Source: an uncultured Verrucomicrobia subdivision 3 bacterium (GTDB lineage Bacteria > Verrucomicrobiota > Verrucomicrobiia > Limisphaerales > UBA11358). Taken from it: 39,755 nt of DNA. Position 1 is the first letter of the stretch, and every line of letters begins with the position of its first letter. Below are positions 540 through 19,700 of this stretch, one piece after another. Location: the NCBI GenBank assembly GCA_903875465.1, contig CAIQWB010000063.1, positions 1 to 39,755 on the forward strand. Direction: 5' to 3'. The translations under genes and the position numbers were made by a program. The notes beneath the pieces were generated by a model. It saw only the letters and a program-made list of their open reading frames with translations, was not told the origin of the DNA and made no database searches.

Positions 540-937
540 ATTATTTTTTAATGAGAACAGTCGTGGTCACTGGGAAGTCTAAAGGCACCCGATCGGAATT
601 TGAAGGAGTATGAAAACGGTACATAGAAGCGATCTGAGGCTAATTTTTGGTGCGCTTTCTACTCCAGGGAATTTAATAACCAGGGCGCAAGGCACTTTAA
701 ATCCGTATGAACAAATGGCTGGACGGTTAAAGTTTTCTGGTTAGGGCAGGTTCGATTAGAGTGCTGCAAATGCCGGTGACCAGCTCAGGTGGGCCTTAAT
801 TCCTTTGATGTTTAATTGCCCCTGATTGACGCAATTTATACCCTCCCAAGTACATTTTTCCTGTTTAAGCTATTTTTAAATCATGTGTCTGAAGATATTT
901 AATTTTTTACCGAATGGTTTTGGTTGGAGTAGTGGCC
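540..937. other. Intergenic region ahead of the locus, no convincing gene
   Basis: This 398-bp stretch is AT-richer than its surroundings. It contains one 44-codon ORF (610-744) without recognisable homology, rejected as a gene. Its notable content is the tandem operator-like repeat at 806-846 and an AT-rich leader (about 860-912) running up to the first gene. Confidence 0.6.
806..846 (+). promoter_or_regulatory. Tandem 21-bp direct-repeat operator, unit 1
   Basis: There are two half-sites offset by 21 bp: TGATGTTT-N6-CCCTGA at 806-825 and TGACGCAA-N6-CCCTCC at 827-846. The second is a near-ideal match to the consensus shared by six sites in the window; the first keeps TGA.G and CCCT. The site ends 91 bp before the preferred ATG at 938. 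Probable target of the XylR-type regulator encoded at 24257 (inference). Confidence 0.6.
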
Positions 938-3232
938 ATGAATGATGGAGCTTCAACTATAGAAAGTCGAACTGGAATGGAGGATGGCAAGGAGTTCATT
1001 GCCTGGCTAGCTGCCAACCATTGCGCCTGTCGGGTTGTATTCAACCGCTACGATTTTGAGCGGGGCAACTTGCTTACAAACCGCTCGGAACATGTCCTTG
1101 GGACAAAAACGATGGCGGTGCGATTGCCTGAGTCAGAATGGCAGACATCCTGGCAGGCAGCTCTTTCGGCAGGTCAGGGGGCGGGTGAAGTGGCGGTGCG
1201 TTTTGAATGTCGGGCCGGGCAGCTCCGGCAAGCGGCGATAGCAGTTGAGCTGGTTTTTGATCGTTGGTCCGCCCTCAATTATGTCTTGATGCCAGCGGCG
1301 GCATACGATGGCAACCGCTTCCTGTCCCGGAAAATTCCCTATTCGCCGAAGTTATATTTTGTGCAGGACATCGGCAAAGACAACCCGCCTATTATCAGTG
1401 ATGTCCCGCGCTTAAATGCCGGGGAGGGGGTGTCGCGCATTCAAGAGCGCAGTGGCAGTCTGGCCGTGCCAGCCATCGGATTTCAAAATCAACGGTCAGG
1501 ACGGGGATGCTTAATATTCACCCGGCAGGGCAATGGATTGGGCGATTATGGTTTAAGTATTGAGGAATCCCGCCGGCGCGATCAAGCAGTTATCACGGTG
1601 ACCAGTCCGTTGGTCCGTGAATTGAATAGTTACCGCATCTGTGACCGGGATTTTCCATCTGAGGACCAACCGCATGATTTCAAAGCGGGCGAGGTGATGG
1701 AAATCAGTTTCCGGCTGGTGTTTTTTGATGCCCCGCACCCGCAGGATTTATTTGATCGATTGGCCACGGAACGGACAGCTGAGGGGACACCCAAAACCAA
1801 GATGCCGGTGATGCCCTTTTCCGCTTGTTTTGAATTGCAGGAGGAAAAGTTTAACCGGCATAATTTTGTGGCCAAGCATGGCTATTATTCCGTTGGTCCG
1901 CGCCAGAATTTTTTACAGGACTGGCAGATTGGCTGGACCGGTGGGATGATTAGCACCTATCCTCTGCTGTTCGCTGGCGGGCGCCAGACCCGAAAAAATG
2001 TCCTCCGCAATTTTAAATGGTTGTTTCCAGCGGGGATTGCCCCCTCCGGTCTCTTTTGGGATGCGGGCAGGAATGGGACCGAGTGGTTTGGCGGGGATAT
2101 TCGCAAGCCGCATACCGGTGAATGGCACCTGATCCGTAAAAGTGGTGACGCAGTGTTTTATATCATCAAGCAATTCAGGTTGATGGAACAACTTGGGATA
2201 ATGGTGGATCCCGCCTGGCAGCAAGGATTAAAGGGGGTTTGCGACGCCTTGGCAAAACTCTGGCAGAAAAACAAGCAGTTCGGCCAGTTTGTGGATTCAC
2301 TTACGGGGCAGATTTGCGTGGGGGGATCGACCAGTGGAGCAATTATTCCCGCAGCGCTGGTTCTGGCGGCAGATTATTTCAAGGTGCCAAAATATCTGCG
2401 GGTGGCGGTGGCGGCAGCCGAGAAATTTTATCAGGAATTTACGATCAAAGGTTTGAGTTGCGGTGGTCCGGGCGACGCGTTGCAAAATCCTGATTCGGAA
2501 TCGTGGTATGCATTAATTGAAAGTTATCTGGCTTTGTACGAGGCCACAGGTAAGCGATTCTGGTTACAACGGGCGATGGAGACATCCCGGCAATTCTCCT
2601 CGTGGGTGGTGGCTTATGATTTTGAATTTCCCCCTAAATCAACCTTTGCCTGGGCAGGCATTCGGACCACTGGCGCGGTCTATGCGAATACGCAGAACAA
2701 ACATGCCGCGCCTGGACTTTGCACGTTTTCTGGACTGGGCCTGTTAAAGTTATTTCGGGCCACGGGTGACAAATTTCACCTTGAATTGCTGCGGGATATC
2801 GCCTTTGGACTGCCCCAATATCTGCCACATCCCCAGCGGCCCTTGGGCCAGGCAAAGCCAGGCTGGATGTGTGAGCGCGTCAATCTCACTGATTGGGAGG
2901 GACCGGAGCGCATCGGTGAAACACTGGAGATGACCACGTGGGCCGAAACCGCGCTCATGCTGACGACGATTGAGATTCCGGGCCTCTACGTGCAACCGGA
3001 CCAAAGTCTGGTGATGGCATTTGACAATATCACTGCGGAAATCGATGCCGAAACCGACGGCGAATTATCGGTGCACATCCACAACCCCACACCAGCCGCA
3101 GCGGCCGTGCGAGTGTTCGCCGAAAGCCGACACGAAGCCGGCAGGGTACTTCCCGACAATTATTTGTTGGACGGAAGGATTGAATGCCTGCTGCCCGGTG
3201 AGTCAAAAACTCTTAAATTCTTGAAATCATGA
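938..3232 (+). CDS. Putative alpha/alpha-toroid glycosidase-like protein, family unknown
   Basis: I do not recognise a named family. The 764-residue protein has a beta-rich N-terminal half to about residue 310. A helical, aromatic-rich half follows, with repeated motifs typical of (alpha/alpha)6 barrels: GWTGGMISTYPLLFAGG near 335-350, WFGGDIRKPHTGEW near 382-397, ESWYALIESYLALYEATGK near 517-535. A small beta domain closes it. This build recalls toroidal glycosidases and lyases, but catalytic residues cannot be named. I prefer ATG 938 because GGAG lies 8 bp upstream at 926-929; an in-frame ATG at 914 lacks this. There is no signal peptide, so it is probably cytoplasmic. As the first gene of a seven-gene operon containing GH43, GH29 and a transporter, it is probably a catabolic carbohydrate enzyme. 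Confidence 0.6.
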   Translation: MNDGASTIESRTGMEDGKEFIAWLAANHCACRVVFNRYDFERGNLLTNRSEHVLGTKTMAVRLPESEWQTSWQAALSAGQGAGEVAVRFECRAGQLRQAAIAVELVFDRWSALNYVLMPAAAYDGNRFLSRKIPYSPKLYFVQDIGKDNPPIISDVPRLNAGEGVSRIQERSGSLAVPAIGFQNQRSGRGCLIFTRQGNGLGDYGLSIEESRRRDQAVITVTSPLVRELNSYRICDRDFPSEDQPHDFKAGEVMEISFRLVFFDAPHPQDLFDRLATERTAEGTPKTKMPVMPFSACFELQEEKFNRHNFVAKHGYYSVGPRQNFLQDWQIGWTGGMISTYPLLFAGGRQTRKNVLRNFKWLFPAGIAPSGLFWDAGRNGTEWFGGDIRKPHTGEWHLIRKSGDAVFYIIKQFRLMEQLGIMVDPAWQQGLKGVCDALAKLWQKNKQFGQFVDSLTGQICVGGSTSGAIIPAALVLAADYFKVPKYLRVAVAAAEKFYQEFTIKGLSCGGPGDALQNPDSESWYALIESYLALYEATGKRFWLQRAMETSRQFSSWVVAYDFEFPPKSTFAWAGIRTTGAVYANTQNKHAAPGLCTFSGLGLLKLFRATGDKFHLELLRDIAFGLPQYLPHPQRPLGQAKPGWMCERVNLTDWEGPERIGETLEMTTWAETALMLTTIEIPGLYVQPDQSLVMAFDNITAEIDAETDGELSVHIHNPTPAAAAVRVFAESRHEAGRVLPDNYLLDGRIECLLPGESKTLKFLKS

Positions 3233-3262
3233 AACGATTTCTCGCAAGCAGTGGTGGCTAGG

Positions 3263-4795
3263 ATGAATTACCACAATCCAGTAATTCCGGGTTTTTATCC
3301 CGACCCCAGCGTTTGCCGGGTGGGTGAGGGTTTTTACCTGGTTAACAGCAGCTTTGAATACTTTCCAGGGGTGCCGATCTGGCACAGCCGAGATTTGATT
3401 CACTGGCGGCAGTTGGGCCATGTGCTGACCCGGCGTAGTCAATTAGAACTGGCCGGGGTGCGGTGCTCCGATGGGATTTACGCGCCAACGCTGCGCTATC
3501 ACCAGGGCTTTTTTTATATGATTACGACGCTGGTCAGCTCCGGAACCTACCGGAATTTCTGGGTGATCGCCACGGACCCGGCGGGGCCTTGGAGTGATCC
3601 GGTTTGGTTTGACCAAAGCGGCATTGATCCCTCGTTGTTTTTCGACGAGGACGGCCGGGTGTATTTTCAATCCAATCGCGGGATGACTTTCAAAATGGAG
3701 CGGGCCATTTATCAAAGCGAAGTTGACCTTCCGTCCGGCAGGCGCCTGACCGAGCCGGTCATCATCTGGCGGGGCAGCGGCGGAAGTTACGTTGAGGGAC
3801 CGCATATTTATAGGCGGGAGGGCTGGTATTACCTCCTGACCGCGGAAGGGGGCACGAGTTATGGTCACATGGTGGCGGTGGCACGGAGCCGGAATATTTG
3901 GGGTGACTTTGAAGCCTGCCCGCACAACCCAATTCTATCCAACCGCCATGCCTATGAGAATCTGCACGGTACGGGGCACGCCGACCTAGTGCAGGCGGCG
4001 GACGGCACCTGGTGGATGGTGCATCTGGCCTTTAGAAAAACGGTAGGCGATGTGCATACCCTTGGCCGGGAGACGTGTCTGACCCCGGTAACCTGGTGTG
4101 GGGGCTGGCCCATCGTGAATCATACCGGCACCACGGCCGAAGCCATTGAGGCGACCACCCTCCCCCTCCATCCGTGGCCAGAGGTGGACGGACGCGATGA
4201 TTTCGACACGCCAGTACTGGGGATGGTGTGGATTCAGTTGCGCAATCCGGAGATGAATAATTACTCACTGACAGATCGACCAGGATTTTTGCGATTGCGA
4301 GGCGTGGCCACCAGTCTTTTTGATCTGGCTTCGCCCACCCTCGTCGCCCGCCGGCAGCAACATTTTGAATTTACCGCGGGCACCCGCCTGGAATTTGAAC
4401 CCGGCACTCCTCAAGAAGAAGCTGGGATGGCTTTGCTAATGACCAACGAGCATCATTACGACTTTTGCGTGACAAGCCGGGCGGGCCAGCGGGTGCTCCA
4501 AGTACGATATCATTTGGAATTAATCTGGCAAACGGCGGTGGAGATACCACTGACTTCGGGGCCATTAGACTTGAAGATTACAGGTTCGCGCGAGCATTAT
4601 CGGTTTTCATTTTCCCAGTCAGGTCAAGATTTTCGTGAAATTGCCAGGGTCAACACGCGTTATTTGGGCACAGAGGTTACGGGCGGTTACAATGGCGTGG
4701 TGATCGCCCTGTATGCCACCGGGCATGGCGGAGTTTGCTCGAAGCCTGCGGATTTTGACTGGTTTGATTATCAGCCGCAAGGAGGCAGCGAATGA
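3263..4795 (+). CDS. GH43 family beta-xylosidase / alpha-L-arabinofuranosidase
   Basis: An inverting glycosidase of family GH43, with a five-bladed beta-propeller in the first ~310 residues and a C-terminal concanavalin-like beta-sandwich (about 325-505). This two-domain build is typical of XynB-type enzymes that release xylose or arabinose from short oligosaccharides. The catalytic triad is visible: base Asp14 in YPDPSV, pKa-modulating Asp122 in GIDPSLFFD, and acid Glu178 in VEGPHIY. ATG 3263 is preferred because family members begin almost directly at N-PVI-GFYPDPS; a GTG at 3251 would add four residues. It has no signal peptide, so it likely acts in the cytoplasm on imported oligosaccharides. 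It begins 30 bp after the preceding gene and overlaps the transporter gene by 4 bp (ATGA). Xylose versus arabinose specificity cannot be decided by eye. Confidence 0.9.
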   Translation: MNYHNPVIPGFYPDPSVCRVGEGFYLVNSSFEYFPGVPIWHSRDLIHWRQLGHVLTRRSQLELAGVRCSDGIYAPTLRYHQGFFYMITTLVSSGTYRNFWVIATDPAGPWSDPVWFDQSGIDPSLFFDEDGRVYFQSNRGMTFKMERAIYQSEVDLPSGRRLTEPVIIWRGSGGSYVEGPHIYRREGWYYLLTAEGGTSYGHMVAVARSRNIWGDFEACPHNPILSNRHAYENLHGTGHADLVQAADGTWWMVHLAFRKTVGDVHTLGRETCLTPVTWCGGWPIVNHTGTTAEAIEATTLPLHPWPEVDGRDDFDTPVLGMVWIQLRNPEMNNYSLTDRPGFLRLRGVATSLFDLASPTLVARRQQHFEFTAGTRLEFEPGTPQEEAGMALLMTNEHHYDFCVTSRAGQRVLQVRYHLELIWQTAVEIPLTSGPLDLKITGSREHYRFSFSQSGQDFREIARVNTRYLGTEVTGGYNGVVIALYATGHGGVCSKPADFDWFDYQPQGGSE

Positions 4796-7389
4796 ACCGC
4801 TGGCATACGGCATTTTTTGGAGGCGGGCTGCTCGCGCTGGTGCTGCTGGTCAATGGTCCGGCTTGGGCCCAGTCGAATCAAGAGAGCTTTGGGTTCTTCC
4901 GGCGGGAACAGGCGCTGCCGATGGAGCGGGCAGGACGTTTTTTGGGGCAGTCCGACGGGCGGTTGCTGGTGGGGGGCGGTCTGGACGCCAGCGGCAACCC
5001 CAGCGACGACGTTCTGGTCCAGACAGATTCGGGTTGGAAATCATTTAAATTGAGGGAACCGCTCGCATTTTGCGGTTTTGTCAGTGGCACTTTGCTTGAA
5101 GGATCAGAAACCCGCAGTCGGCTATTTTTAATCGGTGGATTCACCAAGGGCGGACTGAGCCGCCAGGTTAGTGAGCTGGAGTGGCGGCATGGTACTTTGC
5201 GACAAAGCGAATTGCCGGCATTGCCGGAAGCGGTTGCGCTTGCGGGCGCGGGCTTTTTCGAGGACCAGGCCAAAAAGCAATTGTACGTTGTGGGTGGTAC
5301 AACAGCGACAAACGCCAGCACCGTCTCACATAAATTATGGCGGCACAGCTTTGGGGATCCGGCAAAGCCAGGTTGGGAGGAATTGCCTTCACAGCCCGGG
5401 GTGGGACGGCTGTGTCCCGGGGTCGCCTGCTTTTACAATGATTTGCTGGTACTGGGCGGGTTTACCGTAACGACTAACGCAGGTAAAACGATTTATACCC
5501 CCACCCGTGCCGCTCAAGCCTACCGTTGGGAGGTGATTGACGGGACGACATTCACTGGTTGGCGGGATCTGACCCCATTGCCGGAGGCGGTTGCCGCCGC
5601 AGCAGTGTTCATGACCGGGCAGGTGCATGCGGGCGTGGCGGGTGGTTTTACCCAGTCCATCATCGGAAACCTGGGGGAAATGCAGACTGGCGTGGGCACC
5701 TCTACCATTCAGATTTACCATGACGTGACGGATACCTGGGTGCGAAAAGGCGAGTTGCCGGAGGCGCTGACGGCGGCGACCGGTCTTCATGATGGCAAAT
5801 TAACCCTGCTGGGAAAGGCTGCAAACGGGGCCACGGTGGCCTATGACATGACCATTCAACGGCGGGTAAAAAGCCTTGGCTGGCCTGATTATGTGGGTTT
5901 GTTAACCTACTTTAGCTTGGTGGCGTTTGCGGGGATGTATTTCAGCCGCAAACAAACTGGCAGTGCTGGGTTTGCGCTGGGCGATCGGAAAATCCCCTGG
6001 TGGATGGCGGGCATCAGCATGTTTGCCAGTGCGGCGAGCAGCATTAGCTTCATGGCCATCCCAGCTCTGGCCTTCCGGACCAGCATGCTGTGGGCGCTGC
6101 CCGCCCTGATGCTGATACCGCTGTTCTTTTTGGAAGCCTATGTACTGTATCCATTGATTCGCAAACTGGAAATCACCTCAACTTTTGAATACTTGGAGCG
6201 CAGGTTTCATCCCTCGCTACGTTATATTGCCAGCGCACAAGCCATGGCGTTACAGACGTTTGGTCGCATGAACATGGTATTGCTGCTGCCGGCACTAGCC
6301 ATCGCGGCGGTAACCGGGATGAGTGTGTTTGCAAGCGTGCTGTTGATGGGGGGGGTGACGACGGTTTATTCCGCCAAGGGTGGTATGCGGGCGGTGGTGG
6401 TCACGGAAGTTATTCAAGGCATCACAATGGTGCTGGGCATCAGCCTTATTGTAATCATGGCGATCACAGGTCTGCCTCATGGTTGGAGCAGCTTTGTGGA
6501 GGTGGGCACGCGCTTCCACAAGTTTGATCTGGGCATCTGGAGCCTGGACTACACGATGCCGGTTTTGTGGATCCTGATTTTAACGCCCTTGTTCAACAAA
6601 CTGGCCTTTGCCGCCGACCAGCCGACGGTGCAACGGGTGTTTGCGACGCCGCTGAAGGACGTGCGCAAGCTAGCCCTCATGTTTTTGTGCTTCAGTGTTT
6701 TTATTTCTTTCGCGGTGAATTTTGCCGGAATCTCCGTGTTTGCATATTTTCACCAGCACCCAGACGAACTGGACCCCGCCATGACCAACGACCAGATTAT
6801 ACCGCTCTACATCGTGCAGCGACTGCCAGTGGGGCTTGCTGGGTTGATCATAGCCTCCTTGTTTGCAGCGGCGATGTCGGCGCTGGCGGGGAGCATGAAC
6901 AGTGTGGCCATTTTATTCACCGAGGATTATTATGCCAAGATCAAGGAAAGCATTTCGGACCGGGAGCGGTTGCTGACGATGCGGATCGCCTCGTTGGTGG
7001 CGGGTACGGTGGCCACCCTGTGCGCACTCTATATGGGCACTATGAGCTTGCGGTCTTTATTTCAAACGTGGAACGAGCTCTTTGCCATGCTCGGCGGGGG
7101 GTTTCTCGGAGTTTACATCTTGGGCACTTATACGCGTCGAGCCAACGCTGTGGGCGCTTTTAGCGGGGCGCTGGCGAGCATCGGGGTTGCATTATGGTTG
7201 AAGTATGGCACCCCGGTGCACTGGTATTTTTACACACCCGGAGCGGTCATCGCCTGCGTGGTCATTGGCTACACGGTAAGCCTCTGCACACCACCGCCCC
7301 AGCACAGCCTGGCCGGCCTGACGATCTTTGACATCAAACGCGATTTGAACCGGACATCACCTGCCCCCAAAAACTCAAAAATAATATGA
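4792..7389 (+). CDS. Kelch-domain / sodium:solute symporter (SSS) fusion transporter
   Basis: This 865-residue protein has a signal-like N-terminus (about 1-27, ending AWA). A Kelch-type beta-propeller follows (about 30-355) with repeated GG motifs such as LLVGGG, LIGGF, VVGGTT and VLGGF. A full SSS transporter (about 365-845) comes next, opening GWPDYVGLLTYFSL and containing GDRKIPWWMAGISMFASAASSISFM, here split by residues, a segment characteristic of Na+-coupled sugar and sialate symporters. The propeller resembles the cyclically permuted mutarotase (YjhT-like) family, so it may bind or mutarotate the sugar outside the membrane (inference). This is the only transporter gene in the window and likely the route of product uptake. 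A strong GGAGG precedes the ATG. Start and stop overlap both neighbours by ATGA, implying translational coupling with GH43 and GH29. Confidence 0.88.
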   Translation: MNRWHTAFFGGGLLALVLLVNGPAWAQSNQESFGFFRREQALPMERAGRFLGQSDGRLLVGGGLDASGNPSDDVLVQTDSGWKSFKLREPLAFCGFVSGTLLEGSETRSRLFLIGGFTKGGLSRQVSELEWRHGTLRQSELPALPEAVALAGAGFFEDQAKKQLYVVGGTTATNASTVSHKLWRHSFGDPAKPGWEELPSQPGVGRLCPGVACFYNDLLVLGGFTVTTNAGKTIYTPTRAAQAYRWEVIDGTTFTGWRDLTPLPEAVAAAAVFMTGQVHAGVAGGFTQSIIGNLGEMQTGVGTSTIQIYHDVTDTWVRKGELPEALTAATGLHDGKLTLLGKAANGATVAYDMTIQRRVKSLGWPDYVGLLTYFSLVAFAGMYFSRKQTGSAGFALGDRKIPWWMAGISMFASAASSISFMAIPALAFRTSMLWALPALMLIPLFFLEAYVLYPLIRKLEITSTFEYLERRFHPSLRYIASAQAMALQTFGRMNMVLLLPALAIAAVTGMSVFASVLLMGGVTTVYSAKGGMRAVVVTEVIQGITMVLGISLIVIMAITGLPHGWSSFVEVGTRFHKFDLGIWSLDYTMPVLWILILTPLFNKLAFAADQPTVQRVFATPLKDVRKLALMFLCFSVFISFAVNFAGISVFAYFHQHPDELDPAMTNDQIIPLYIVQRLPVGLAGLIIASLFAAAMSALAGSMNSVAILFTEDYYAKIKESISDRERLLTMRIASLVAGTVATLCALYMGTMSLRSLFQTWNELFAMLGGGFLGVYILGTYTRRANAVGAFSGALASIGVALWLKYGTPVHWYFYTPGAVIACVVIGYTVSLCTPPPQHSLAGLTIFDIKRDLNRTSPAPKNSKII

Positions 7390-8795
7390 AAAGAAATCTG
7401 CTTTTGTTAGCGTTATTAGGGGTGGCGTTTTTTTCCTGGCAACTCCAGGCCGGCGAACCCGCTGAGACCAAGGAACAGCGCGATTCACGCATGACTTGGT
7501 GGCGCGAGGCAAAATTTGGACTTTTTATCCATTGGGGAGTCTATTCCGTGCCCGCCGGCTATTATCGTGGCAAGTCCGTGGCCGGCAACGGCGAATGGAT
7601 TATGAACAAAGGTAAAATCCCCATGGCGGAATACCAGCTATTCGCCAAGGATTTCAATCCGGTCAAGTTCAATGCTTACGACTGGGTAAAGGCCGCCAAA
7701 GAAGCGGGAATGAAATATATCATAATTACCGCGAAGCACCACGACGGCTTTGCGATGTTTGACACCAAGGTTAGCAAGTGGAACATCGTCGACGCCACAC
7801 CTTACAGTAAAGATGTGCTGAAGCCGCTCGCTGAAGCGTGTCGGAAATACGGCGTCAAGCTGGGCTTCTACTATTCACAGGCGCAGGATTGGAATAACGG
7901 CGGCTCAACCGGGGTGCCGAGCGGTACCAACGCCGCCCCGGGTTGGGATACAGCGCAAAAGCACGACATGGATGATTACATTGACAACATCGCCATCCCC
8001 CAAGTGAAGGAAATCTGTTCGCACTATGGCGAGTTTCCCGCCGTCATCTGGTGGGACACACCGCGCAACATGAACACCAACCGTGCCCAAAAGCTTTACG
8101 ATGCCGTGCATGCGCTTCGACCGAGCATTATTTTGAACAACCGGCTAGGCGGCGGCTATAATGGCGATACCGAGACTCCGGAGCAGCATATTCCGCCCCA
8201 AGGTTACCCGGGGCGTGATTGGGAAACTTGCATGACGATGAACGGCACTTGGGGGTACAAGAAGGATGACAATAACTGGAAATCCACCGAGACACTTATC
8301 CGCAATCTTTGCGACATTGCCAGTAAGGGTGGTAACTATTTGCTCAACATCGGGCCGACGAGCGAGGGGCTCGTTCCGCAGCCAAGCCTCGACCGGTTGG
8401 CCGAAATCGGCAAGTGGATGAAGGTGAACGGAGAGGCGATTTATGGCAGCGGCCCCACGCCTTTTGGGGCTGAGGCTGGCAAGTTTAGTGACACTGAGAA
8501 AGACAAGGACGGCACGCCTAAATTCATGGCGAACTGGGATTGGCGTGCGACAACAAAACCGGGGAAAATTTTCCTCGAAATCTTCCAATGGCCGACAAGC
8601 AGGCGGTTTGTCCTGCCCGGTCTGCTCAGCAAGGTGACCGATGCGACATTGGTCGCGACCGGTCAAAAATTAGCCGTCTCGGCATCCTCTGCTGGTATGA
8701 CGCTTGATTTGCCCGCAGAGGCGCCGGATAAAATCGCCTCTGTCGTGCGGTTGGAACTCGCGGATACCTCGCCGAAGGTGGAATCTACCAATTGA
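7386..8795 (+). CDS. GH29 alpha-L-fucosidase, secreted
   Basis: A retaining exo-alpha-L-fucosidase of family GH29. A signal peptide is clear (about 1-22, cleavage after LQA). The (beta/alpha)8 catalytic domain spans about 30-370, with the diagnostic WWREAKFGLFIHWGVYSVP near 38-56, AKHHDGFAMFD, and the nucleophile region AVIWWDTP with Asp224 as the predicted nucleophile. The SKGGNYLLNIGPTSEG motif ends the barrel, followed by a short beta-sandwich. The acid/base residue is poorly conserved in GH29 and is not assigned. The start codon overlaps the transporter stop (ATGA). Secretion implies that terminal fucose is removed before import. A length of 469 residues is normal for the family. Confidence 0.93.
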   Translation: MKRNLLLLALLGVAFFSWQLQAGEPAETKEQRDSRMTWWREAKFGLFIHWGVYSVPAGYYRGKSVAGNGEWIMNKGKIPMAEYQLFAKDFNPVKFNAYDWVKAAKEAGMKYIIITAKHHDGFAMFDTKVSKWNIVDATPYSKDVLKPLAEACRKYGVKLGFYYSQAQDWNNGGSTGVPSGTNAAPGWDTAQKHDMDDYIDNIAIPQVKEICSHYGEFPAVIWWDTPRNMNTNRAQKLYDAVHALRPSIILNNRLGGGYNGDTETPEQHIPPQGYPGRDWETCMTMNGTWGYKKDDNNWKSTETLIRNLCDIASKGGNYLLNIGPTSEGLVPQPSLDRLAEIGKWMKVNGEAIYGSGPTPFGAEAGKFSDTEKDKDGTPKFMANWDWRATTKPGKIFLEIFQWPTSRRFVLPGLLSKVTDATLVATGQKLAVSASSAGMTLDLPAEAPDKIASVVRLELADTSPKVESTN

Positions 8796-8875: not shown

Positions 8876-10525
8876 ATGGCAACCGCTGGCGACTTTGATT
8901 TTATGGTTCAGGCGCATAACCCCATTATCACTGGTTTCAATCCCGACCCCTCGGTTTGCCGGGTGGGGGAAGATTATTACATTGCCACGTCGACCTTCGA
9001 GTGGTTTCCGGGAGTGCAAATCCATCACTCGCGCGATTTGGCCCATTGGCGATTACTCGGAAGGGCACTGGATCGTGTCTCGCAACTCGATATGCGCGGC
9101 TGCCAGAATTCCGGCGGCATCTGGGCACCGTGCCTGACGCATGCGGACGGAAAATTTTGGCTGGTTTACACCAACGTTCGTCATCACATGAGTGGGGTGG
9201 TGATGGACACCCCTAATTATCTTGTCACCGCCACAGAAATTGAAGGACCATGGAGTGAACCGGTCTTTCTTAATGCGAGTGGTTTTGATCCTAGCCTTTT
9301 CCACGATGCCGACGGCAAAAAATACGTGGTGCAAATGCAAATGGGTGAGGCGGTCACGCCAGTGCGCTTCGACGGAATTATTTTGCAGGAGTTCGACACG
9401 GGGCGGATGAAATTGGTTGGCGAGCCTAAAAAAATCTGGCCCGGCAGCCCGATTGGCATCACCGAAGGACCGCATTTGCTAAAAAAAGACGGCTGGTATT
9501 ATCTTATTACCGCAGAAGGCGGCACGGCGATGCGCCATGCCATCAGTGTCGGTCGCAGCAAATATCTTTGGGGGCCATACGATTTACATCCGCAGAATCC
9601 CCTTTTGACCGCGTTTCAACAAGCGCACCTTGATTTGAAATCCGCCGGCCACGGCTGTTTTGTGGAGACGCAAAACGGCGAATGGTTCACCGTGCATCTG
9701 GCCCATCGGCCACTCCAGCGCCCCGGCCGGCTGGTGCTTGACCGCGAGGAAAACAAATCCGCGCCGCTGGGGCGGGAGACTTGCCTGCAAGGGTTGTGCT
9801 GGGGGGAGGACGGCTGGCCTCGGCTCGCGCAGGGTGGCAATTCGCCAGCGGAAGTGGTGGCGGTCAATCTGCCGCCGCAAGCATGGCCAGCGGACCCGTT
9901 ACGGGATGATTTCGACGGTCACCGGCTCAACCGTCATTTTCAAACTTTGCGGGAACCTTTGGAGGAAAATTGGGCCTCCCTGAACCGTCGGCCAGGCTGG
10001 CTGAGTTTACGGGGACGTGACTCGCTGGCTTCGACCTTTGACCAGAGTTTAGTGGCGCGGCGATTGCAACATTTCCAGGCGGCAGCGGAGACCTGCCTGG
10101 CATTTCAACCGAGCCACTTTAAACAGGCTGCGGGTTTGGTAGCCTATTATGACCGGTTGCATTACCACTATTTTCGCGTGACAGCGGCCGGACCGGGCAA
10201 GATCAAACTGGGCGTGATCTCCTCAGAAAATACCAAGACCAGCAGGTTGGAAGTGGCCGAATTACCCATCGAAGCGGGGCAGGGCCTCCGTTTGCGCATG
10301 GACATGGATCATGCAGAACTACGGTTTGCATGGTCGACGGGGGCATCGCGGCGCGGAGGGAGCTGGGAAAGCGTTGACCAAGTGTTTGAGGCAACGATGC
10401 TAGGCGACTGGGTTTCACCGCACAGTAATTTCACTGGCACTTTCTGGGGCGTTTGCTGCCAGGATTTGCTCGACCGCTCCATTTGGGCAGCATTTGATTA
10501 TTTTGATTATCAACCCCGGGTGTGA
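8876..10525 (+). CDS. GH43 family beta-xylosidase / alpha-L-arabinofuranosidase (second)
   Basis: A second XynB-like GH43 with propeller (about 10-320) and C-terminal beta-sandwich (about 340-545). Numbering from ATG 8876, the triad is Asp24 in FNPDPSV, Asp138 in GFDPSLFHD and Glu197 in TEGPHLL. It shares the SRDL.HW, GRETCL and FDYFDYQP motifs with the first GH43 but is clearly diverged, suggesting different linkage or sugar preference. An in-frame ATG at 8903 would still give a complete enzyme. No signal peptide. The 80-bp gap before it is the longest inside unit 1 and contains no operator repeat, so it is probably co-transcribed. Confidence 0.9.
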   Translation: MATAGDFDFMVQAHNPIITGFNPDPSVCRVGEDYYIATSTFEWFPGVQIHHSRDLAHWRLLGRALDRVSQLDMRGCQNSGGIWAPCLTHADGKFWLVYTNVRHHMSGVVMDTPNYLVTATEIEGPWSEPVFLNASGFDPSLFHDADGKKYVVQMQMGEAVTPVRFDGIILQEFDTGRMKLVGEPKKIWPGSPIGITEGPHLLKKDGWYYLITAEGGTAMRHAISVGRSKYLWGPYDLHPQNPLLTAFQQAHLDLKSAGHGCFVETQNGEWFTVHLAHRPLQRPGRLVLDREENKSAPLGRETCLQGLCWGEDGWPRLAQGGNSPAEVVAVNLPPQAWPADPLRDDFDGHRLNRHFQTLREPLEENWASLNRRPGWLSLRGRDSLASTFDQSLVARRLQHFQAAAETCLAFQPSHFKQAAGLVAYYDRLHYHYFRVTAAGPGKIKLGVISSENTKTSRLEVAELPIEAGQGLRLRMDMDHAELRFAWSTGASRRGGSWESVDQVFEATMLGDWVSPHSNFTGTFWGVCCQDLLDRSIWAAFDYFDYQPRV

Positions 10526-10544
10526 GGCCCAGACCAAGCTGCAC

Positions 10545-12269
10545 ATGCGTTTCATACTCGACATGGTTCACCATAATCCAGGTGAGCCTCCATTTGCCAC
10601 CAAGTTTGGTGATCCGGCCCATTTGCGGGATTACGGCTTTAACGGACAGGTTTTCAAGCATATTAACTGTGTGGCGACCTACGAGGCCACGGGAGTCGAC
10701 TGTTTCCCTGCCGGCACCCCGGAACGCGCATGGCTGGAAGCGTTCACCCCCCAGATAGAGCAGGAGATTCTCCGGGCCAAAACGCATGGGCTGCAGGTGT
10801 ACTACCATTTGGATCTTTTTGTTCTGCCGCGGCGATTACTGGAATATTTCCGCAGTGAAATTTGCGATCCGCAAACCGGACGCATATTGCTGGAGCGACC
10901 CAGGACGCTGGAGTTGCATACGGTGCTGTTTGATGAACTGGCGCGGCGATTTCCCCTAGTGGATGGCTATATTATACGGGTGGGGGAGACCTATCTTTTC
11001 GACACGCCACATCACGCTGGGAACAGTCCCATACCGCGCATTGGTCCGGCCTGGACACCTGATTATCTTTACGAGGAGACTCTCGCTGGCCGGGAACCAG
11101 CAGACGCCCGCTGGACTCAGCAGCAGGCAGATGCTTATGTGGTATTGCTCCGCTTTCTGCGCCAAGAAATCTGTGTGCGCCATGGTAAACAATTGTTTTT
11201 CCGGACTTGGGATATTTTTCCGGATAAACTGCATGCCCGCGTAGATCATTACCTGCAAGTGACAAATGCTGTCGAACCACACCCTAAGCTGGCCTTCTCC
11301 ATCAAACACACCGCCTTGGATTTCTGGAGGCGAGTGAAAGTCAATGACTGTTTGCGGCAAGGCCGGCACCCACAAATCGTCGAGGTTCAATGCCAGCGGG
11401 AATATGAGGGAAAAGGGGCATATCCAAACTATGTGATGGCCGGGGTCATCAATGGATTCGCGGAAAATGCCATTAAAACAGGCCTGAAAGACCTGCTCGG
11501 CCACCCGGGCATCCTCGGGGTTTTCGCCTGGTCCCGTGGTGGTGGCTGGTATGGTCCTTATATTAAACATGAATTATGGCCGGATTTGAACGCTTATGTT
11601 CTGGCACAGTTTGTCAATAATTCGAGCCGGACAGAAGCGGTGATTTTTCAGCAATATGCGGAGGAACGTTTGGGGCTGCGAGCCAGGTCGGTCCGGGATT
11701 TTCGCGAATTGTGCCTGCTGTCAGCACGTGGGATTTTGCTGGGGCGGCACTGTGCGGCTTTTGACCAGGCGTTGGGAGAGTCGGTGTTGCCCACCGCTTG
11801 CTGGATGCGGGATGATCGATTGGGGGGACGTCAGCAATTGGCGCCGGTGTTGGATTATTTGGCTAACCACCGGGCCGATGCGGCGGCGCTGGCGGAAAAA
11901 GCAGAGGCGGTGCGACTGTGGGAGCAGATTGAGACGCTCGCAAAACGGATAATATGGCCAAATGTGCAAACCGGGGAAGCAGTAAAAATTTCTGCCACCT
12001 ATGGCCGCGTGCTGTTCAGCATCGTACACCAAGGCTGGCGGGCGCTGATTGCGGGTGAGCGCGGGCACCGCCAAGAATTTAATGATGCCGCCAGCCGCTA
12101 TGCCGCCGGTTGGCAAGAATTCCGTGCGCTGGCCGAATCAACCTGGTGTGCCTCACTCTATGAGGGGACATATTTTAATTTGCCCGGCACCCCGGACGTG
12201 CCGGGAATGGACGCTTCCCTGGAATATTATCGCGTGGTATTTGGCGAACCGCAGCATCCTTTAAAATGA
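10545..12269 (+). CDS. GH67-like (alpha-glucuronidase-like) TIM-barrel protein
   Basis: A 574-residue cytoplasmic protein without a signal peptide. The central segment (about 220-350) reads like the barrel of GH67-type enzymes: FFRTWDIFPDKLHA, then KLAFSIKHTALDFWR, then the acidic-aromatic stretch IVEVQCQREYEGKGAYPNY, which recalls the EVQ...QEY.G segment of alpha-glucuronidases. A helical C-terminal region follows. If correct, it would remove glucuronic acid or a methylated form from oligosaccharides already cleaved by others. I infer this from motif resemblance only; catalytic residues are not verified. ATG 10545 is chosen because the upstream in-frame ATG at 10494 would overlap the GH43 gene by 32 bp. 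Its stop overlaps the lyase start by ATGA. Confidence 0.5.
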   Translation: MRFILDMVHHNPGEPPFATKFGDPAHLRDYGFNGQVFKHINCVATYEATGVDCFPAGTPERAWLEAFTPQIEQEILRAKTHGLQVYYHLDLFVLPRRLLEYFRSEICDPQTGRILLERPRTLELHTVLFDELARRFPLVDGYIIRVGETYLFDTPHHAGNSPIPRIGPAWTPDYLYEETLAGREPADARWTQQQADAYVVLLRFLRQEICVRHGKQLFFRTWDIFPDKLHARVDHYLQVTNAVEPHPKLAFSIKHTALDFWRRVKVNDCLRQGRHPQIVEVQCQREYEGKGAYPNYVMAGVINGFAENAIKTGLKDLLGHPGILGVFAWSRGGGWYGPYIKHELWPDLNAYVLAQFVNNSSRTEAVIFQQYAEERLGLRARSVRDFRELCLLSARGILLGRHCAAFDQALGESVLPTACWMRDDRLGGRQQLAPVLDYLANHRADAAALAEKAEAVRLWEQIETLAKRIIWPNVQTGEAVKISATYGRVLFSIVHQGWRALIAGERGHRQEFNDAASRYAAGWQEFRALAESTWCASLYEGTYFNLPGTPDVPGMDASLEYYRVVFGEPQHPLK

Positions 12270-14872
12270 ACTCATTTATCAGCGGACTAGCCGCACTTGG
12301 CCTGGGCATCGCGATAACCGGCACCCAGGCGGCGGAAATCCCTCGCCACCTGGCGGGTGAACTGGATGCGGAAACGGTTCTAAACGGTGCGTATCCCTGG
12401 CCTCCCTCACCCGCCGTAACCGTCAGCAATGACGCGACAGGGTTTGCCCGGGAACGATTGTCCGTAGTGCCGCCGGCGGGGGTGCATCCGCGCATTCTCA
12501 TCAGCCCGGCGGATCTGCCAGACTTGCGGCGGCGGGTGGCCGGTTCTACGATGGGCAAGGCTCTGCTGGAGAATTTGCGGTCCCGGGTCAGGATGGCCAT
12601 CAAAACGCCCGGGGAATGGGGTGCGCGCTTTTACGATGCCCTGGCAGCGGGAGATTTGGGGGGCGCCCGGCAACTGTTGGCGGAAAAAGGCGGCAAGCCG
12701 CCCAGCATCGGGCATTACCAACCCTTCATCGAAGCCTTTGCACTGGAGGCTTTGGACGCACTAATTGCCAAAGATGAGGTTCGTGGACGGAAGGTCGGTG
12801 CGGCGCTGGCCAATTACGCCGTCCTGGCCGAGCCGGCGGTCGAGCAAGCCCTCGGTCAGCCGTTGTCGGATGATGTATGGCGGGTCAAACTCAACGGTCC
12901 GGTAACTGGGGACTGGAGCAGTGACCAGGGATTGCGCGAGCTGGTGGGGTACGAGATTTTGGGTTATACCTATGATTTTGCCTACAATTACATGACGGAG
13001 CCGCAACGGGCGCAGGTAAGGCAGGTGATTGCACGAGTCACGAATGGTGAATTGTGGCTGGGCGCGCGGCTGCCCCATCATTTCCGCAATTGGAACTGGG
13101 TGGCGGTTGGGCTGAGCCAGCCATTGCTGGCGCTGGCGATAGAAGGCGAGGAGGGGTATGATCCGCGCATTTTCCGGATGGGGGAGGAGATCGCACATGA
13201 TTATTTTACTTACGGCATTTCGGAGCAGGGAAGTTCCACGGAGGCCGTGGGGTACACCCAATTTGGGCTGGTCTGGGCGAATCCATTTGTGGTGGCGGCG
13301 GCCCGGCGCGGGGACACGCTACTGACACAAAATCATATGCGCGGCATGATCGACTGGTATCTGCATACCATGGAACCCGCAGCCCTGTGCCAGCGATCAG
13401 CGACGGCCGCCCTGGATGCCGAGCAATTGCAGCGCGGCCTGTCTCAGTTGTGGACCAGCCATGGCGACGGTGGGGACGAGGGTCCCGCCATATGGACTAT
13501 GGCGATGTGGAAGTATTTTTATCCGACCGACCCAAAGATTGACTTGCTCTGGCGGGTGGTGGTTAACAACGGCCCGGGCAAAGCTTTCACCGGCAATTTT
13601 CATACCATCGAGGCACTCTTATGGGCAAATGACGCGCCAATCAGTCTCGCACCGGAGGCGGTGCAAAAGTTAAATTTACCGTTTGCTTTTTTTGATCCCA
13701 TGCGCAGTTCACTGATTGCACACAGCGGCTGGGACACCAATGCGGCGGTGTTGCAATTTGAGTGTCGCACAGACGCCGTGGGAGGGAGCCATGAGCACGC
13801 TGACCGGGGCGCCTTTACCTTTTCCGCCTTGGGACGGCCATGGGCCAAGGACAATTTTCGTTCGGTGGAGACGCGGCACCATAATTGTATTTTGATAGAC
13901 GGTTTGGGCCAGGGTTTCTGGCCGGGCCCAGGCAAGTGGCTGGGGTTGGCGGACGAAGGGTGGGGGATGGTGGCGGCTTGCGATGCGAAGGATTGTTATG
14001 ATTGGTGGTGGCCCAAGGAAATTCGCACCGAGGATCCGCAAGCCTTTGAGCGGTTCCACTATTCCCGTTGGGAGAGCTTCTTAGGCGACGCCCGCGAATT
14101 TCGGCGCGAATTCCCTGGGTTTGTGCCAATACACGACCCGCGGCCCTCGGTGGTTGCGCACTGGCAGGGCTTTGCCGAACATGACCCGCGCATGTGGGAC
14201 GAGGACAGCTGGCCGGTGAGGCTGCCGCACAATCCGGTGCAGCGCGCTTTTCGCACGGTGGCTTTCGTGCGGAGCCCTCATCCATACCTGCTGGTGGTAG
14301 ATGATATTCAGAAGGACGCGCAGGAGAGGTTGTACGAATGGTTGATGCAGACCGGGATGAACACAGCCCTGGCACGGCAGGCGGGGAACGATCTGATCTT
14401 ATGCGACGCCACGGTACCGCTGGATGAAAATGGGGTGCCGCGTCCCCGCCGGGGTGACCGTGAATTGCTGGTGCGGGTGCTGAATTGCGGTTTGCCGGCC
14501 CGGCCGGAGGCTTATCAAACACGCCCATCCTTTCGGCTGGAGACCTTTGAGCGGCGAGATACCCTGGTGCCGGAAGCTCCTGCCACCGTGCTGGCGGGGG
14601 CGCGCACCTTTGGGCTGGACAAGCGGTTGGTGATCAGTAGTCGTGCGGTCGCACCTGATTTCCGGATTTTATTATGGCCCTTGCGGGAGGGGGAGGCACT
14701 GCCGGAAACGCAGTGGAACCGAGCGCACACCCAGTTGACGTTGCGGGCTGTGGACGTCCATGACACTATTTACTTGGGTGCTTTGGCCAGCGGCCGGACG
14801 CAACTGCGGATGGACCGTCACGGGCAAGCCCCGGTGGCAATCCAGCCGGGTACTGAAGATATTTCAAAGTGA
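12266..14872 (+). CDS. Heparinase II/III-type polysaccharide lyase, secreted
   Basis: An 868-residue secreted enzyme with a signal peptide (about 1-22, ending TQA). A helical toroid domain spans about 150-430. The heparinase II/III-like beta-sandwich that follows contains the diagnostic HEHADRGAF (His509, His511, Asp513), followed by GRPWAKDNF. In the toroid, STEAVGYTQFG (Glu326, Tyr330) lies where related lyases hold the catalytic or substrate-binding Glu and Tyr. Such enzymes cleave uronic-acid-containing glycans by beta-elimination, leaving a 4,5-unsaturated uronate. The precise PL family is uncertain. A related, longer lyase lies at 16757. Unsaturated products would suit the GH105 hydrolase encoded in unit 2. 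This is the last gene of unit 1; its TGA forms the first bases of the next operator repeat. Confidence 0.85.
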   Translation: MNSFISGLAALGLGIAITGTQAAEIPRHLAGELDAETVLNGAYPWPPSPAVTVSNDATGFARERLSVVPPAGVHPRILISPADLPDLRRRVAGSTMGKALLENLRSRVRMAIKTPGEWGARFYDALAAGDLGGARQLLAEKGGKPPSIGHYQPFIEAFALEALDALIAKDEVRGRKVGAALANYAVLAEPAVEQALGQPLSDDVWRVKLNGPVTGDWSSDQGLRELVGYEILGYTYDFAYNYMTEPQRAQVRQVIARVTNGELWLGARLPHHFRNWNWVAVGLSQPLLALAIEGEEGYDPRIFRMGEEIAHDYFTYGISEQGSSTEAVGYTQFGLVWANPFVVAAARRGDTLLTQNHMRGMIDWYLHTMEPAALCQRSATAALDAEQLQRGLSQLWTSHGDGGDEGPAIWTMAMWKYFYPTDPKIDLLWRVVVNNGPGKAFTGNFHTIEALLWANDAPISLAPEAVQKLNLPFAFFDPMRSSLIAHSGWDTNAAVLQFECRTDAVGGSHEHADRGAFTFSALGRPWAKDNFRSVETRHHNCILIDGLGQGFWPGPGKWLGLADEGWGMVAACDAKDCYDWWWPKEIRTEDPQAFERFHYSRWESFLGDAREFRREFPGFVPIHDPRPSVVAHWQGFAEHDPRMWDEDSWPVRLPHNPVQRAFRTVAFVRSPHPYLLVVDDIQKDAQERLYEWLMQTGMNTALARQAGNDLILCDATVPLDENGVPRPRRGDRELLVRVLNCGLPARPEAYQTRPSFRLETFERRDTLVPEAPATVLAGARTFGLDKRLVISSRAVAPDFRILLWPLREGEALPETQWNRAHTQLTLRAVDVHDTIYLGALASGRTQLRMDRHGQAPVAIQPGTEDISK

Positions 14873-16756: not shown

Positions 16757-19700
16757 ATGAATTTATTCCGCCTTTTGGTATTTGCAACCGCCCTGATGAC
16801 CTTTTTTGGCGGGCCACGACTGTGGGCGCAGACCGCGCCGCTGCCTGTCCCGCCACAGGATCAGGGCTTGCCATACACCCGCTCCGCCGAGACCCGGGCG
16901 ACGGAACGAATCAAGGACACCACCGCCGTGCTGGCAGGCAGCAGATATGCCTGGGTGCATGGTTTCAAGGTGCGGCTGGATGAGGCAGACTGGCGGGCGG
17001 AAGCCGTGCTGCAGGATGGCAAAGTTTATGTCCCATTAGCATTTGCCGGGGTGCTGACCTTGCGGGAGTTCAAGCCAGCGCCGGCACCCACCTATCTGCA
17101 GGACCGTTGGGTTTATACACTGGCTATTCCCCGGGTGGCCCCGTCGGTGGTGATGCTGGGTGGCAAACCTTTTGTAGACCTGGCGGAAGAAGCCCGGCAG
17201 CGTGGTTTCAAAACCTGCGTGAATACGCGGGGATTGCTGCTGGTGGGAGATCATGACCGGTCCTTTGGCGCATCCGAGTCCAACCTGCTGGACTGTGTCA
17301 TAACGTTGTTTGACACACCGGAAAAATTTGCCGACCCGGACATTGCATTGCGCTGGATTCCCACACTCCATCGCCAGGGGGCGTGGACAAATTATGTTAA
17401 AGTCACACCCGCTGAATTGCGGGTTTATTCCGGTCCTGAAACAGCCTGGTCGACGACCCCACAAACGCAATACGACTATAGTGGTTTTAATAAAAAGTTG
17501 TTGGGTTCCCGGGTGCCGCCGCCCGGGGTCTATCCGCGCGTGTTATTCAGTCCGCAAGATGTCCCAATGCTGGCGGCCCGGGTTAAAAGCACCAAAATCG
17601 GCCAGAAATCCCTGATTGAGATACAGTACCTGCTTGAACACAGTTGGTGGGACACCAACACCAGCGATGGCCGAGTCTTTGAAAAATTAGCCGCCGGCAA
17701 TCTAGCCGGGCTGGACTGGCCAACGGATGTGGCCCCCCAGCAGGTGGCCACCATCAATACTGCGCAAATGTTTCAAGGGGAAAAAGCAGGGATATTTAAT
17801 ACCCACATCGCCTATGTGCCGGAATGTCTGGCGGATATGGCGCTCTATTGTCTTTTGACCGGGGACAATACGCACGGCCGTCAAGCAGCGGCAGCGATTG
17901 CCAATTATTACCGGCTGCGCGAACCTTTGATTGACCAATGGAACGCTCTGAGCGACTCCGAATTTGGGAGCGATCCACTGGACGGCAATGGCGCGGCCAC
18001 TTCCTGGCGCGGCATGCACGGTCTGGTGGCTCATATGAATCTTGGGCTGGCCCTAGACTTTGGCGGGAAATGGATGACGTCGGGAGAAAAAGAGCTTATG
18101 TGGCGGGTGATTGCCAAAGCCACTTATGGCCGGCGTGCCTACGGTGAGGACACAACGGTTCGCTTTCGCGATGTGAACTGGGTGGGCTGGGACCTGCCGC
18201 AATTTATTGCTCTCACCGCCATTGAAGGCCAGCAGGGATTTGACCGGGAGGCTTGGGAAGCGGGCCGGGACACGTTGCGGGCATTTTGCGACTGGGGGAT
18301 TGATTATGCGGGCGTGGTGTTTGAAAGCAATGGGAAAACCCCGGGCAGTTTTCAATTCATAACGCTATCCATGATTTCGCTGGCACGCCGTGGGGAAAAC
18401 TTTTTTGGTCATCCGCACTGGCGCAAACTGCTGGCCGGCCAAGTCCAAATGACTTCCCCGAGCGGACGGGTAACCGTTAACAGTGGCACCCAATACGAAC
18501 CCTACAGCCGGCAGTTTCTTTCACTGCAACTCACAGATGAATTCAAAGCGCTTTATCCCCATGAACGTCTGGCGGACTACCTTCTCACCAAGGCGACGGA
18601 GCCGCCGGACCAGATGGTGAATGAATACAATCGTGGTTGGGTGATCCAAAAATTCGATCCCGTCGACTATCACCGGGCGGTTCCGGAAATCAAGCGCCTC
18701 CGCCTGCCGAGCCCGATGTATCCCGGTTTTGTGCCCGGGGTGTTGTACGATGCCGATTTTCAGCCCACTCGGCGGACCGATTTGCACCTGCCGCTGGATT
18801 TTAACGCCCCAGTTCAGGGGGTGTTTTCCAGTTACAGTGATCGCACTACAAATGCCGTGTGGATCAACATGATGGTGCGTCCCAACCATTATTTGGGGGC
18901 GGGCCACCATCATGCCGACGCGGGGATGTTTCATTTCTCCGCCCTAGGGGTGGACTGGTTTACCCAATCGCCGTTTGACCAAGTATATGACGGAAAGTAT
19001 TACAATCTGGTGCAGGTAGACGGCGAAGCGGAGCCTGTTTCAATGGCGGAGGATCACATCTTGGGATGGAACGCCGCAGCCCGGTATCTGGGCGGGGCAG
19101 TGACGTCGGAAGCGGCGTCTGGCAGCGCCGACATGACTTATGCCTACAGTTATCGCTGGTTGACCCAGCCTCCGCAGGAATGGAGCGACCACCTGAAAAG
19201 TATGGGCTGGGAAGCGGAACCGTCGCTCGCTGTTCAAAAAATCTTTGCCGGTACGGCCCGCTATAAAATGCGGCCTTGGTGGTTGACCTATAATTACGCC
19301 AATTACATGCCTACCTGTCGCGCCTTGTTTAATCCAATGCAACGGGTGTTTCGGACGGTAGCGCTGGTGCGGGGAGCCCGGCCCTATGGCTTGGTAGTGG
19401 ACGATTTGAAAAAGGACACCGGGTCACACTTGTATCAATGGGTCGCTATGCTCAGTGGCGGGGCCTGGCGAACGGATGCGTCTGGTCTGGCACCGAATCA
19501 AGCCGTGCTGGCTTACCGTTTAGGCGACCCGGATCCCGCTGCAAGCGAAGCGCCACCTGGCATCGCGCCACAGTCCGGCGAACCGCTGCTGCTGGTTTGC
19601 GCCTTGGGGCTGACAGATAGTGGTGATCCCGCCCGTTCACTTATTCAGGTCGAACGCGTCGCGGGACCGGCGGATCGCAATGGCAAACCGCAATTTTACA

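What the first reader, a model, noticed from the sequence alone, without database searches (positions are those of the whole stretch)
938..3232. Unassigned glycosidase-like protein at the head of the operon
It is 764 residues, toroid-like, cytoplasmic, and leads an operon of GH43/GH29/GH67-like enzymes. I cannot place it in a known GH or PL family, so it could be a new activity on the same glycan.
Basis: inference. Interest (0 to 1): 0.6.

Follow-up and report, generated by a model that had tools for sequence, protein, structure and literature searches.

The report
Unnamed toroid enzyme in sugar-degradation operon
The first gene of a bacterial operon for breaking down a uronic-acid-containing sugar polymer encodes a real, conserved, barrel-shaped enzyme that matches no named family in the libraries searched, probably a sugar-cutting enzyme of a kind not yet assayed.

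Summary
A 764-residue ORF (938-3232) heads a tightly packed operon and is under purifying selection. Q itself matches no Pfam or NCBIfam family, and its 36-row profile finds no solved structure by sequence below E 0.5. AlphaFold (pLDDT 92.8) gives an N-terminal beta-sandwich and an (alpha/alpha)6 toroid, the domain order of PL27. The family is patchy in its phylum, inferred to be Verrucomicrobiota (23 of 387 genomes with strong matches), occurs in Streptomyces, and has a sister group reaching Bacteroides beside GH88 and GH43. Three acidic residues (D519, E521, E646) are the deepest-conserved charged positions and lie at one end of the toroid. Operon partners: two GH43s, a GH67/GH138-fold protein, two lyase-like proteins, GH88, GH29 and an SSF transporter. 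I read Q as a cytoplasmic exo-enzyme of an unnamed six-hairpin family, most likely a carboxylate-based glycoside hydrolase for oligosaccharides of a uronate-bearing glycan. A lyase or dehydratase is the main rival. CAZy/dbCAN could not be queried, so an existing CAZy family without a solved member is not excluded. Activity is inferred, not shown.

The parts
938..3232 (+). Unassigned enzyme Q, 764 aa, first gene of the operon
926..929 (+). GGAG, likely ribosome-binding site 8 nt before the ATG at 938
   Evidence: sequence, by eye
1022..1729 (+). N-terminal beta-sandwich domain (residues 29-264)
   Evidence: secondary structure of the model
1292..1318 (+). Conserved loop PAAAYDGNR (residues 119-127) in the N-terminal domain; P119 in 43 of 43 and 20 of 20, N126 in 43 of 43 and 15 of 20
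1817..2974 (+). (alpha/alpha)6 toroid domain (residues 294-679)
2135..2137 (+). R400, 43 of 43 in the family, 10 of 20 in the sister group
2492..2500 (+). D519-S-E521; D519 in 43 of 43 and 19 of 20, E521 in 63 of 63; candidate catalytic carboxylates
   Evidence: codons checked
2696..2704 (+). N587-K-H589; family 100% and 93%, sister group N 10 of 20, H 10 of 20
2873..2875 (+). E646, 43 of 43 and 17 of 20; third candidate catalytic carboxylate
   Evidence: codon checked
3251..4795 (+). GH43 with GH43_C2 domain, no signal-like N-terminus
4792..7389 (+). Kelch plus sodium:solute symporter fusion
7386..8795 (+). GH29 alpha-L-fucosidase family, signal-like N-terminus
8876..10525 (+). Second GH43 with GH43_C2 domain
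10494..12269 (+). P2: TIM-barrel protein with GH67/GH138-like fold, no Pfam match; the true start is probably the Met 17 codons in
12266..14872 (+). P3: oligoalginate-lyase-like, signal-like N-terminus
16757..19930 (+). P4: second lyase-like protein, aligned with P3 (29% identity) in the profile
22421..24241 (+). GH88 (unsaturated uronyl hydrolase family)

Best explanation
Q is a cytoplasmic, exo-acting enzyme of an unnamed protein family in the six-hairpin (alpha/alpha)6 class. It most likely hydrolyses a terminal glycosidic bond in small oligosaccharides that the SSF symporter imports after secreted lyase-like proteins and GH29 trim a uronate-bearing, xylose/arabinose- and fucose-containing glycan. 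A pocket at one end of the toroid, possibly capped by the conserved PAAAYDGNR loop of the N-terminal domain, would hold the terminal sugar. Two of the carboxylates D519, E521 and E646 would act as general acid and base, and R400, N587, H589, W333 and W668 would bind the sugar. Shown by computation: the gene, its conservation, a confident predicted fold, the conserved residues and the neighbours. Inferred: hydrolysis, exo action, the role of each residue, the substrate and the order of steps.
For: High-confidence model with beta-sandwich plus toroid. Among the 50 VIA rows most are sugar-active enzymes: MmpH Z 24.3, GH76 21.6-23.5, PL27 23.1, cellobiose and N-acylglucosamine 2-epimerases about 21-22. 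Foldseek's long alignments over both domains include, besides PL27, GH94 phosphorylases, GH116 and a bacterial glucoamylase, all with low TM scores. The sister-group profile matches GH76 mannanase sequences at E 8e-10. D519, E521 and E646 are conserved in 43 of 43 family members and in 19, 20 and 17 of 20 sister-group members; R400, N587 and H589 are less deep. They lie at or just before the first helix of a hairpin, that is, at one end of the barrel (read from the helix list). Nine close-orthologue loci keep an SSF-kelch gene in 8, GH43 in 7, P2 in 5 and a P3-like gene in 4, within five genes of Q. P2 has a GH67/GH138-like fold. GH88 occurs in 15 of 23 genomes with Q against 7.5 expected.
Against: No activity data. 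Toroid folds also serve lyases, dehydratases, epimerases and others; the VIA list also holds a terpene synthase, a thioredoxin-domain protein and a phage tail protein at Z 20.8-22.7. The VIA row with the widest cover, PL27, is a lyase. The Asn/His/Tyr/Arg set conserved in the family would also suit a uronate lyase. In 31 divergent family loci the neighbours are mixed: P2 homologues in 3, a GH43 homologue in 2, a GH29 homologue in 2, a GH88-like protein in 1, so the window's substrate cannot be carried over to the family. The P2-Q linkage count is circular: every one of the five linked genomes supplied a row to the P2 profile, and 13 of 20 genomes with P2 have no strong Q. Co-occurrence with GH88 is not corrected for genome size or enzyme richness.
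Confidence: 0.5

Rival explanations
1. Q is a beta-eliminating enzyme: a PL27-like exo-lyase that removes a cap from a uronate, or a uronate dehydratase like the former GH154, making the 4,5-unsaturated end that the operon's GH88 then hydrolyses.
For: PL27 (5no8) is the top Foldseek hit (E 1.7e-10) and is aligned between model residues 11 and 682 (Z 23.1, 469 residues, rmsd 6.9). PL27 has the same order of domains, N-terminal beta-sandwich then (alpha/alpha)6 barrel (PMC8377490, passages). GH88 is in the operon, and in Bacteroides finegoldii the sister protein is next to GH88. Two GH154 proteins were found to be dehydratases, one of them shown to prime its product for GH88 (PMC12269599, passages and section 9). 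Tyr123, Arg400, Asn587 and His589 are conserved in the family.
Against: The A1 profile finds no PL27 chain at E up to 10, although that copy holds one. The NNW motif of GH154 is absent from Q; the family consensus has an N-R-x-N-W stretch where Q reads N-R-H-N-F. The deeply conserved residues are carboxylates, which lyase sites on anionic sugars rarely use (recalled). A GH88-like gene was next to Q in 1 of 31 divergent loci.
Confidence: 0.22
2. Q already belongs to an existing CAZy family that has no Pfam or NCBIfam model and no solved structure, so it is new only to my libraries.
For: CAZy/dbCAN models were not available here; many CAZy families lack Pfam models (recalled).
Against: Q itself has no match in Pfam, NCBIfam or solved chains worth the name. 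The 8 paper searches named no such family, but they were few and not aimed at every CAZy family.
Confidence: 0.2
3. Q is a sugar epimerase or isomerase of the N-acylglucosamine 2-epimerase type.
For: 2-epimerases superpose on the toroid at Z about 21-22. Weak GlcNAc_2-epim matches in 3 of 36 family members and 4 of 19 sister members. The sister-group profile reaches probability 82.6 with 2-epimerases over 101 columns.
Against: The family profile itself gives probability 1.4. The deepest-conserved charged positions are carboxylates, with one recurrent His, H589. Epimerases of this type lack the N-terminal beta-sandwich (recalled).
Confidence: 0.06

Closest known systems
PL27 L-rhamnose-alpha-1,4-D-glucuronate lyase (BACCELL_00875, PDB 5no8)
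   Same: Same domain order; top Foldseek hit; structural alignment reaches into both domains
   Different: No sequence match at E up to 10 with the 36-row profile; rmsd 6.9 over 469 residues, TM about 0.3, so the domains are placed differently or are only analogous
GH127 beta-L-arabinofuranosidases
   Same: Nearest named family by sequence: 13 of 36 members match weakly (best E 7.7e-5) and 8 of 19 sister members (best 6.4e-7); the combined Q plus sister profile reaches probability 94.6 over 183 columns
   Different: No Pfam match for Q; the alignable part stops before the conserved Cys residues of GH127, and Q has no Glu-x-Cys or Cys-Cys
GH76 alpha-1,6-mannanases and MmpH
   Same: Toroid superposes at Z 21.6-24.3; the sister-group profile matches GH76 chains at E 8e-10 over about 74 positions
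   Different: No adjacent Asp-Asp anywhere in Q; extra N-terminal domain; family profile probability 2.0, sister group 77.4, against a thin 5-sequence GH76 set
GH88/GH105 unsaturated uronyl hydrolases
   Same: (alpha/alpha)6 toroid (recalled); GH88 partner in the operon; sister-group profile probability 90.5 over 135 columns
   Different: Family profile probability 11 only; Q has no Pfam GH88 match
Former GH154 uronate dehydratases
   Same: Would fit beside GH88 and lyases
   Different: Asn-Asn-Trp motif absent from Q; no sequence match in solved structures, though I did not check that this copy holds a GH154 chain

Membership tests
Six-hairpin (alpha/alpha)6 glycosidase fold class | Toroid of six helical hairpins | tested here: met
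   Model pLDDT 92.8; of the 998 chains that Foldseek ranked and VIA re-aligned, 969 score Z 5 or more, best 24.3 over 310 residues
GH127 | Pfam GH127 catalytic domain over cut-off | tested here: not met
   Q has no match; 13 of 36 family members match at E 0.1 or better, best 7.7e-5
GH127 | Glu-x-Cys and Cys-Cys zinc/nucleophile residues (role recalled) | tested here: not met
   Conserved in 27 of 30 of the GH127 set; no E.C and no CC in Q
PL27 | N-terminal beta-sandwich then (alpha/alpha)6 barrel | tested here: met
   family description from passages of PMC8377490. Other families seem to share this order (GH94, GH116 and a glucoamylase)
PL27 | Detectable sequence similarity to 5no8/5nok | tested here: not met
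   A1 profile, no hit at E up to 10; only the sister-group profile reaches E 0.0013 over 76 positions
PL27 | Beta-elimination of a rhamnose cap from glucuronate | not testable with these tools
   Needs enzyme assay
GH154 (uronate dehydratase) | Asn-Asn-Trp motif | tested here: not met
   No NNW, N[NHY]W or NW in Q (relatives not scanned); residues from section 9 of PMC12269599
GH154 (uronate dehydratase) | Catalytic Tyr and Arg residues in place | not tested
   No structural superposition with a GH154 chain was made
GH88 | Pfam GH88 over cut-off | tested here: not met
   No match for Q; 5 of 36 family members weakly, best 8.6e-4
GH76 | Adjacent catalytic Asp-Asp | tested here: not met
   No DD in Q; motif taken from PDB titles of inactive variants
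N-acylglucosamine 2-epimerase family | Sequence profile match and catalytic histidines | tested here: inconclusive
   Profile probability 1.4 for the family, 82.6 for the sister group over 101 columns; histidine positions not compared structurally
Any CAZy family without a solved member | dbCAN/CAZy profile match | not testable with these tools
   No dbCAN library here

The most novel reading that the evidence does not exclude
Q and its sister group form a new carbohydrate-active enzyme family whose founding activity opens a bond next to an alpha-linked uronate. In the window's lineage it works with P2, itself possibly a new GH67/GH138-fold family, in a Verrucomicrobiota pathway for a glycan whose structure is not yet known.
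Probability: 0.3. Interest if true: 0.6.

Novelty: new variant of a known kind. Interest (0 to 1): 0.42.

Why it matters
If the assignment holds, Q gives an assayable founder for an unnamed family found in Verrucomicrobiota, Streptomyces and, through its sister group, Bacteroides. The operon narrows the substrate to uronate-bearing oligosaccharides with xylose, arabinose or fucose. The same operon offers a second protein without a family (P2), so one set of assays could define two families.

Tried and rejected
Rejected on evidence: membership of GH127 (no zinc/cysteine motif), GH76 (no Asp-Asp), GH88, GH154 (no NNW). Led nowhere: PHROGs (none), viral contigs (12 pattern matches, no relative), Rfam and tRNA scans (none), sigma-70 scan of 500-3400 (0 found, 2.4 expected in shuffles). 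The main PL27 paper is not held. The GH76 set from this phylum had only 5 sequences. GH173, a new family met in a paper (PMC8810776, passages), is of clan GH-A and unrelated. I considered C595 as a GH127-like metal ligand; it is not conserved in the sister group. A likeness in relative position to the 2-epimerase histidines was a guess and is not used. Model coordinates were not in the Python box, so distances between D519, E521 and E646 were not measured; the N-terminal domain was not folded or searched alone. Families absent from the VIA list are not excluded by that.

Rows dropped: the neighbour scan of divergent loci used 74 of 113 listed proteins, trimmed to fit the residue limit; the sister group 73 of 73. 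Loci L121, L144 and L163 dropped out because the simple gene caller did not keep Q there. L150 repeats L052, and L148 is a second piece of the L147 contig, so neither was counted. The partial match G439 was left out of the co-occurrence count. In this mended version the odds of the novel reading went from 0.35 to 0.30, because all five linked genomes turned out to have supplied rows to the P2 profile.

Full report
Gene and operon. The frame is open from 914 to 3232, and 938 is the likelier start because a GGAG stands 8 nt upstream. By the listed starts, GH43 follows after 18 nt, then an SSF-kelch symporter and GH29 in overlapping frames. After an 80-nt gap come a second GH43, P2 and P3; then a pilin-like protein, an esterase-like protein, P4, P5, a xylose-isomerase-like TIM-barrel protein, GH88 and a regulator with a periplasmic-binding-protein sensor and AraC helix-turn-helix. 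By eye, Q, both GH43s, P2 (from its internal Met) and GH88 lack signal-like N-termini, whereas GH29, P3 and P4 have them.

No family match for Q. Pfam gives only a match at E 0.23, NCBIfam none, phmmer against solved chains nothing below E 0.85. Among its 36-row alignment, members match weakly: 13 GH127, 5 GH88, 3 the 2-epimerases, 2 GH76, 2 GH47; two carry GDSL domains. NCBIfam gives acetylxylan esterase AxeA1 in 2 of 36 (best E 0.0015) and aceric acid hydrolase in 1 (E 0.075). The profile finds no solved chain below E 0.55; the next are unsaturated glucuronyl hydrolases at 0.66.

Distribution. One copy in its own genome. Of 97 relatives 13 match at E 0.001, and 9 of 49 genomes of the genus, 6 of them strongly. 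Of 387 phylum genomes 48 match; 23 of these are strong (E below 1e-60, my count) and one more is partial. Seven plasmid records match: two Streptomyces over 93% of Q at 33% identity, and five weaker, partial ones, among them Bacteroides finegoldii.

Sister group. Distant matches form a sister group whose profile aligns with A1 at probability 100 (E 7e-49 over 593 columns; E 2e-46 with a second alignment). In B. finegoldii this protein, annotated hypothetical, sits between GH88 and GH43. Its Pfam matches are GH127 in 8 of 19, GH76 in 4, 2-epimerase in 4, GH88 in 1. By profile it matches solved GH76 chains at E 8e-10, PL27 at 0.0013 and unsaturated glucuronyl hydrolase at 0.0021. In profile-profile comparison it reaches 94.2 with GH127, 90.5 with GH88, 82.6 with 2-epimerases and 77.4 with GH76, each over part of the length. 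The family itself reaches 68.7, 11, 1.4 and 2.0. This is the pattern of a common fold class, not of membership.

Fold. AlphaFold gives mean pLDDT 92.8 with a beta-sandwich (29-264), a toroid (about 294-679) and C-terminal strands. Foldseek's first hit is PL27; GH94 phosphorylases, GH116 and glucoamylase follow with alignments of similar length, all at TM about 0.2-0.3. VIA-align lists MmpH (24.3), GH76 (21.6-23.5), PL27 (23.1), 2-epimerases (about 21-22), and also a thioredoxin-domain protein (22.7), a phage tail protein (21.3) and a terpene synthase (20.8). PL27 has the widest cover (469 residues between 11 and 682, rmsd 6.9); 7tkv also reaches into the first domain.

Residues. Across 43 family members and 20 sister members, E521, W556, G579 and W668 are invariant. 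D519 is 43 of 43 and 19 of 20, E646 43 of 43 and 17 of 20, N126 43 of 43 and 15 of 20. R400, N587, H589 and C595 are strong only in the family. By the model's helix list these toroid residues lie at or just before the first helix of a hairpin, at one end of the barrel (inference).

Neighbours. In nine close-orthologue loci, within five genes, SSF-kelch is present in 8, GH43 in 7, P2 in 5, P3-like in 4. L049, on a short contig, also has P2 next to Q. In 31 divergent family loci the neighbours are mixed: P2 homologues in 3 (L132, L133, L140), a GH43 homologue next to Q in 2 (L141, L143), a GH29 homologue in 2 (L118, L142), a GH88-like protein next to Q in 1 (L139). Of 387 genomes, 23 have strong Q, 20 have P2 and 7 have both (1.2 expected, p 5e-5; without the own genome p 3e-4). 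In five of the seven the genes lie 0.2 to 7.3 kb apart (coordinates). But all five supplied rows to the P2 profile, which was collected from Q neighbours, so this count cannot stand as independent evidence; 13 of 20 genomes with P2 have no strong Q. GH88 is in 15 of 23 genomes with Q against 7.5 expected (p 0.001) and in 12 of 24 sister-group genomes against 7.8 (p 0.05), uncorrected for genome size or enzyme richness.

P2 and the lyase-like proteins. P2 models at pLDDT 83.5 as a TIM barrel with helical tail. Its best matches are GH67 alpha-glucuronidases (Z 19.4-20.5) and GH138 (18.3-19.2), above the next group at about 16. There are no sequence matches (E 0.54 at best). The P3/P4 profile matches oligoalginate lyase at E 1e-6 and dermatan-sulfate epimerase at 1e-4; heparinase-type chains only at 0.05 and above. 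Together these point to a uronate-bearing glycan.

Reading. Hydrolase is preferred because the deepest-conserved charged residues are carboxylates. Lyase/dehydratase is kept because the domain order is that of PL27, because GH88 is present, and because two GH154 proteins, once filed as hydrolases, turned out to be dehydratases (PMC12269599, passages and section 9). The sequence shows which families this is not; only an assay can say what it does.

Noticed in passing
10494-12269: P2 has a GH67/GH138-like fold but no Pfam match; 20 of 387 phylum genomes hold it at E 1e-30. It may be a second unnamed family.
   Followed up: partly
4792-7389: Fusion of an N-terminal kelch domain to a sodium:solute symporter, near Q in 8 of 9 close loci; in five of them (L048, L050, L051, L052, L054) it is a more distant copy (38-40% identity) just upstream of Q.
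   Followed up: no
12266-14872 and 16757-19930: Two lyase-like proteins that no Pfam model recognises.
   Followed up: partly
24257-25441: Regulator combining a periplasmic-binding-protein sensor with an AraC helix-turn-helix, the arrangement recalled for the xylose regulator XylR.
   Followed up: no
L036, L037 and L008: Divergent relatives of Q carry GDSL-type esterase domains, C-terminal in L036 (and by alignment L037), N-terminal to the Q part in L008.
   Followed up: no
15012-15806 and 33329-34165: Two proteins with prepilin-type N-terminal methylation motifs inside a sugar-degradation cluster.
   Followed up: no
19828-21531: 567-aa protein P5 without a Pfam match at E 0.01, with homologues near Q in L051, L053 and a sister-group locus L158.
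   Followed up: no
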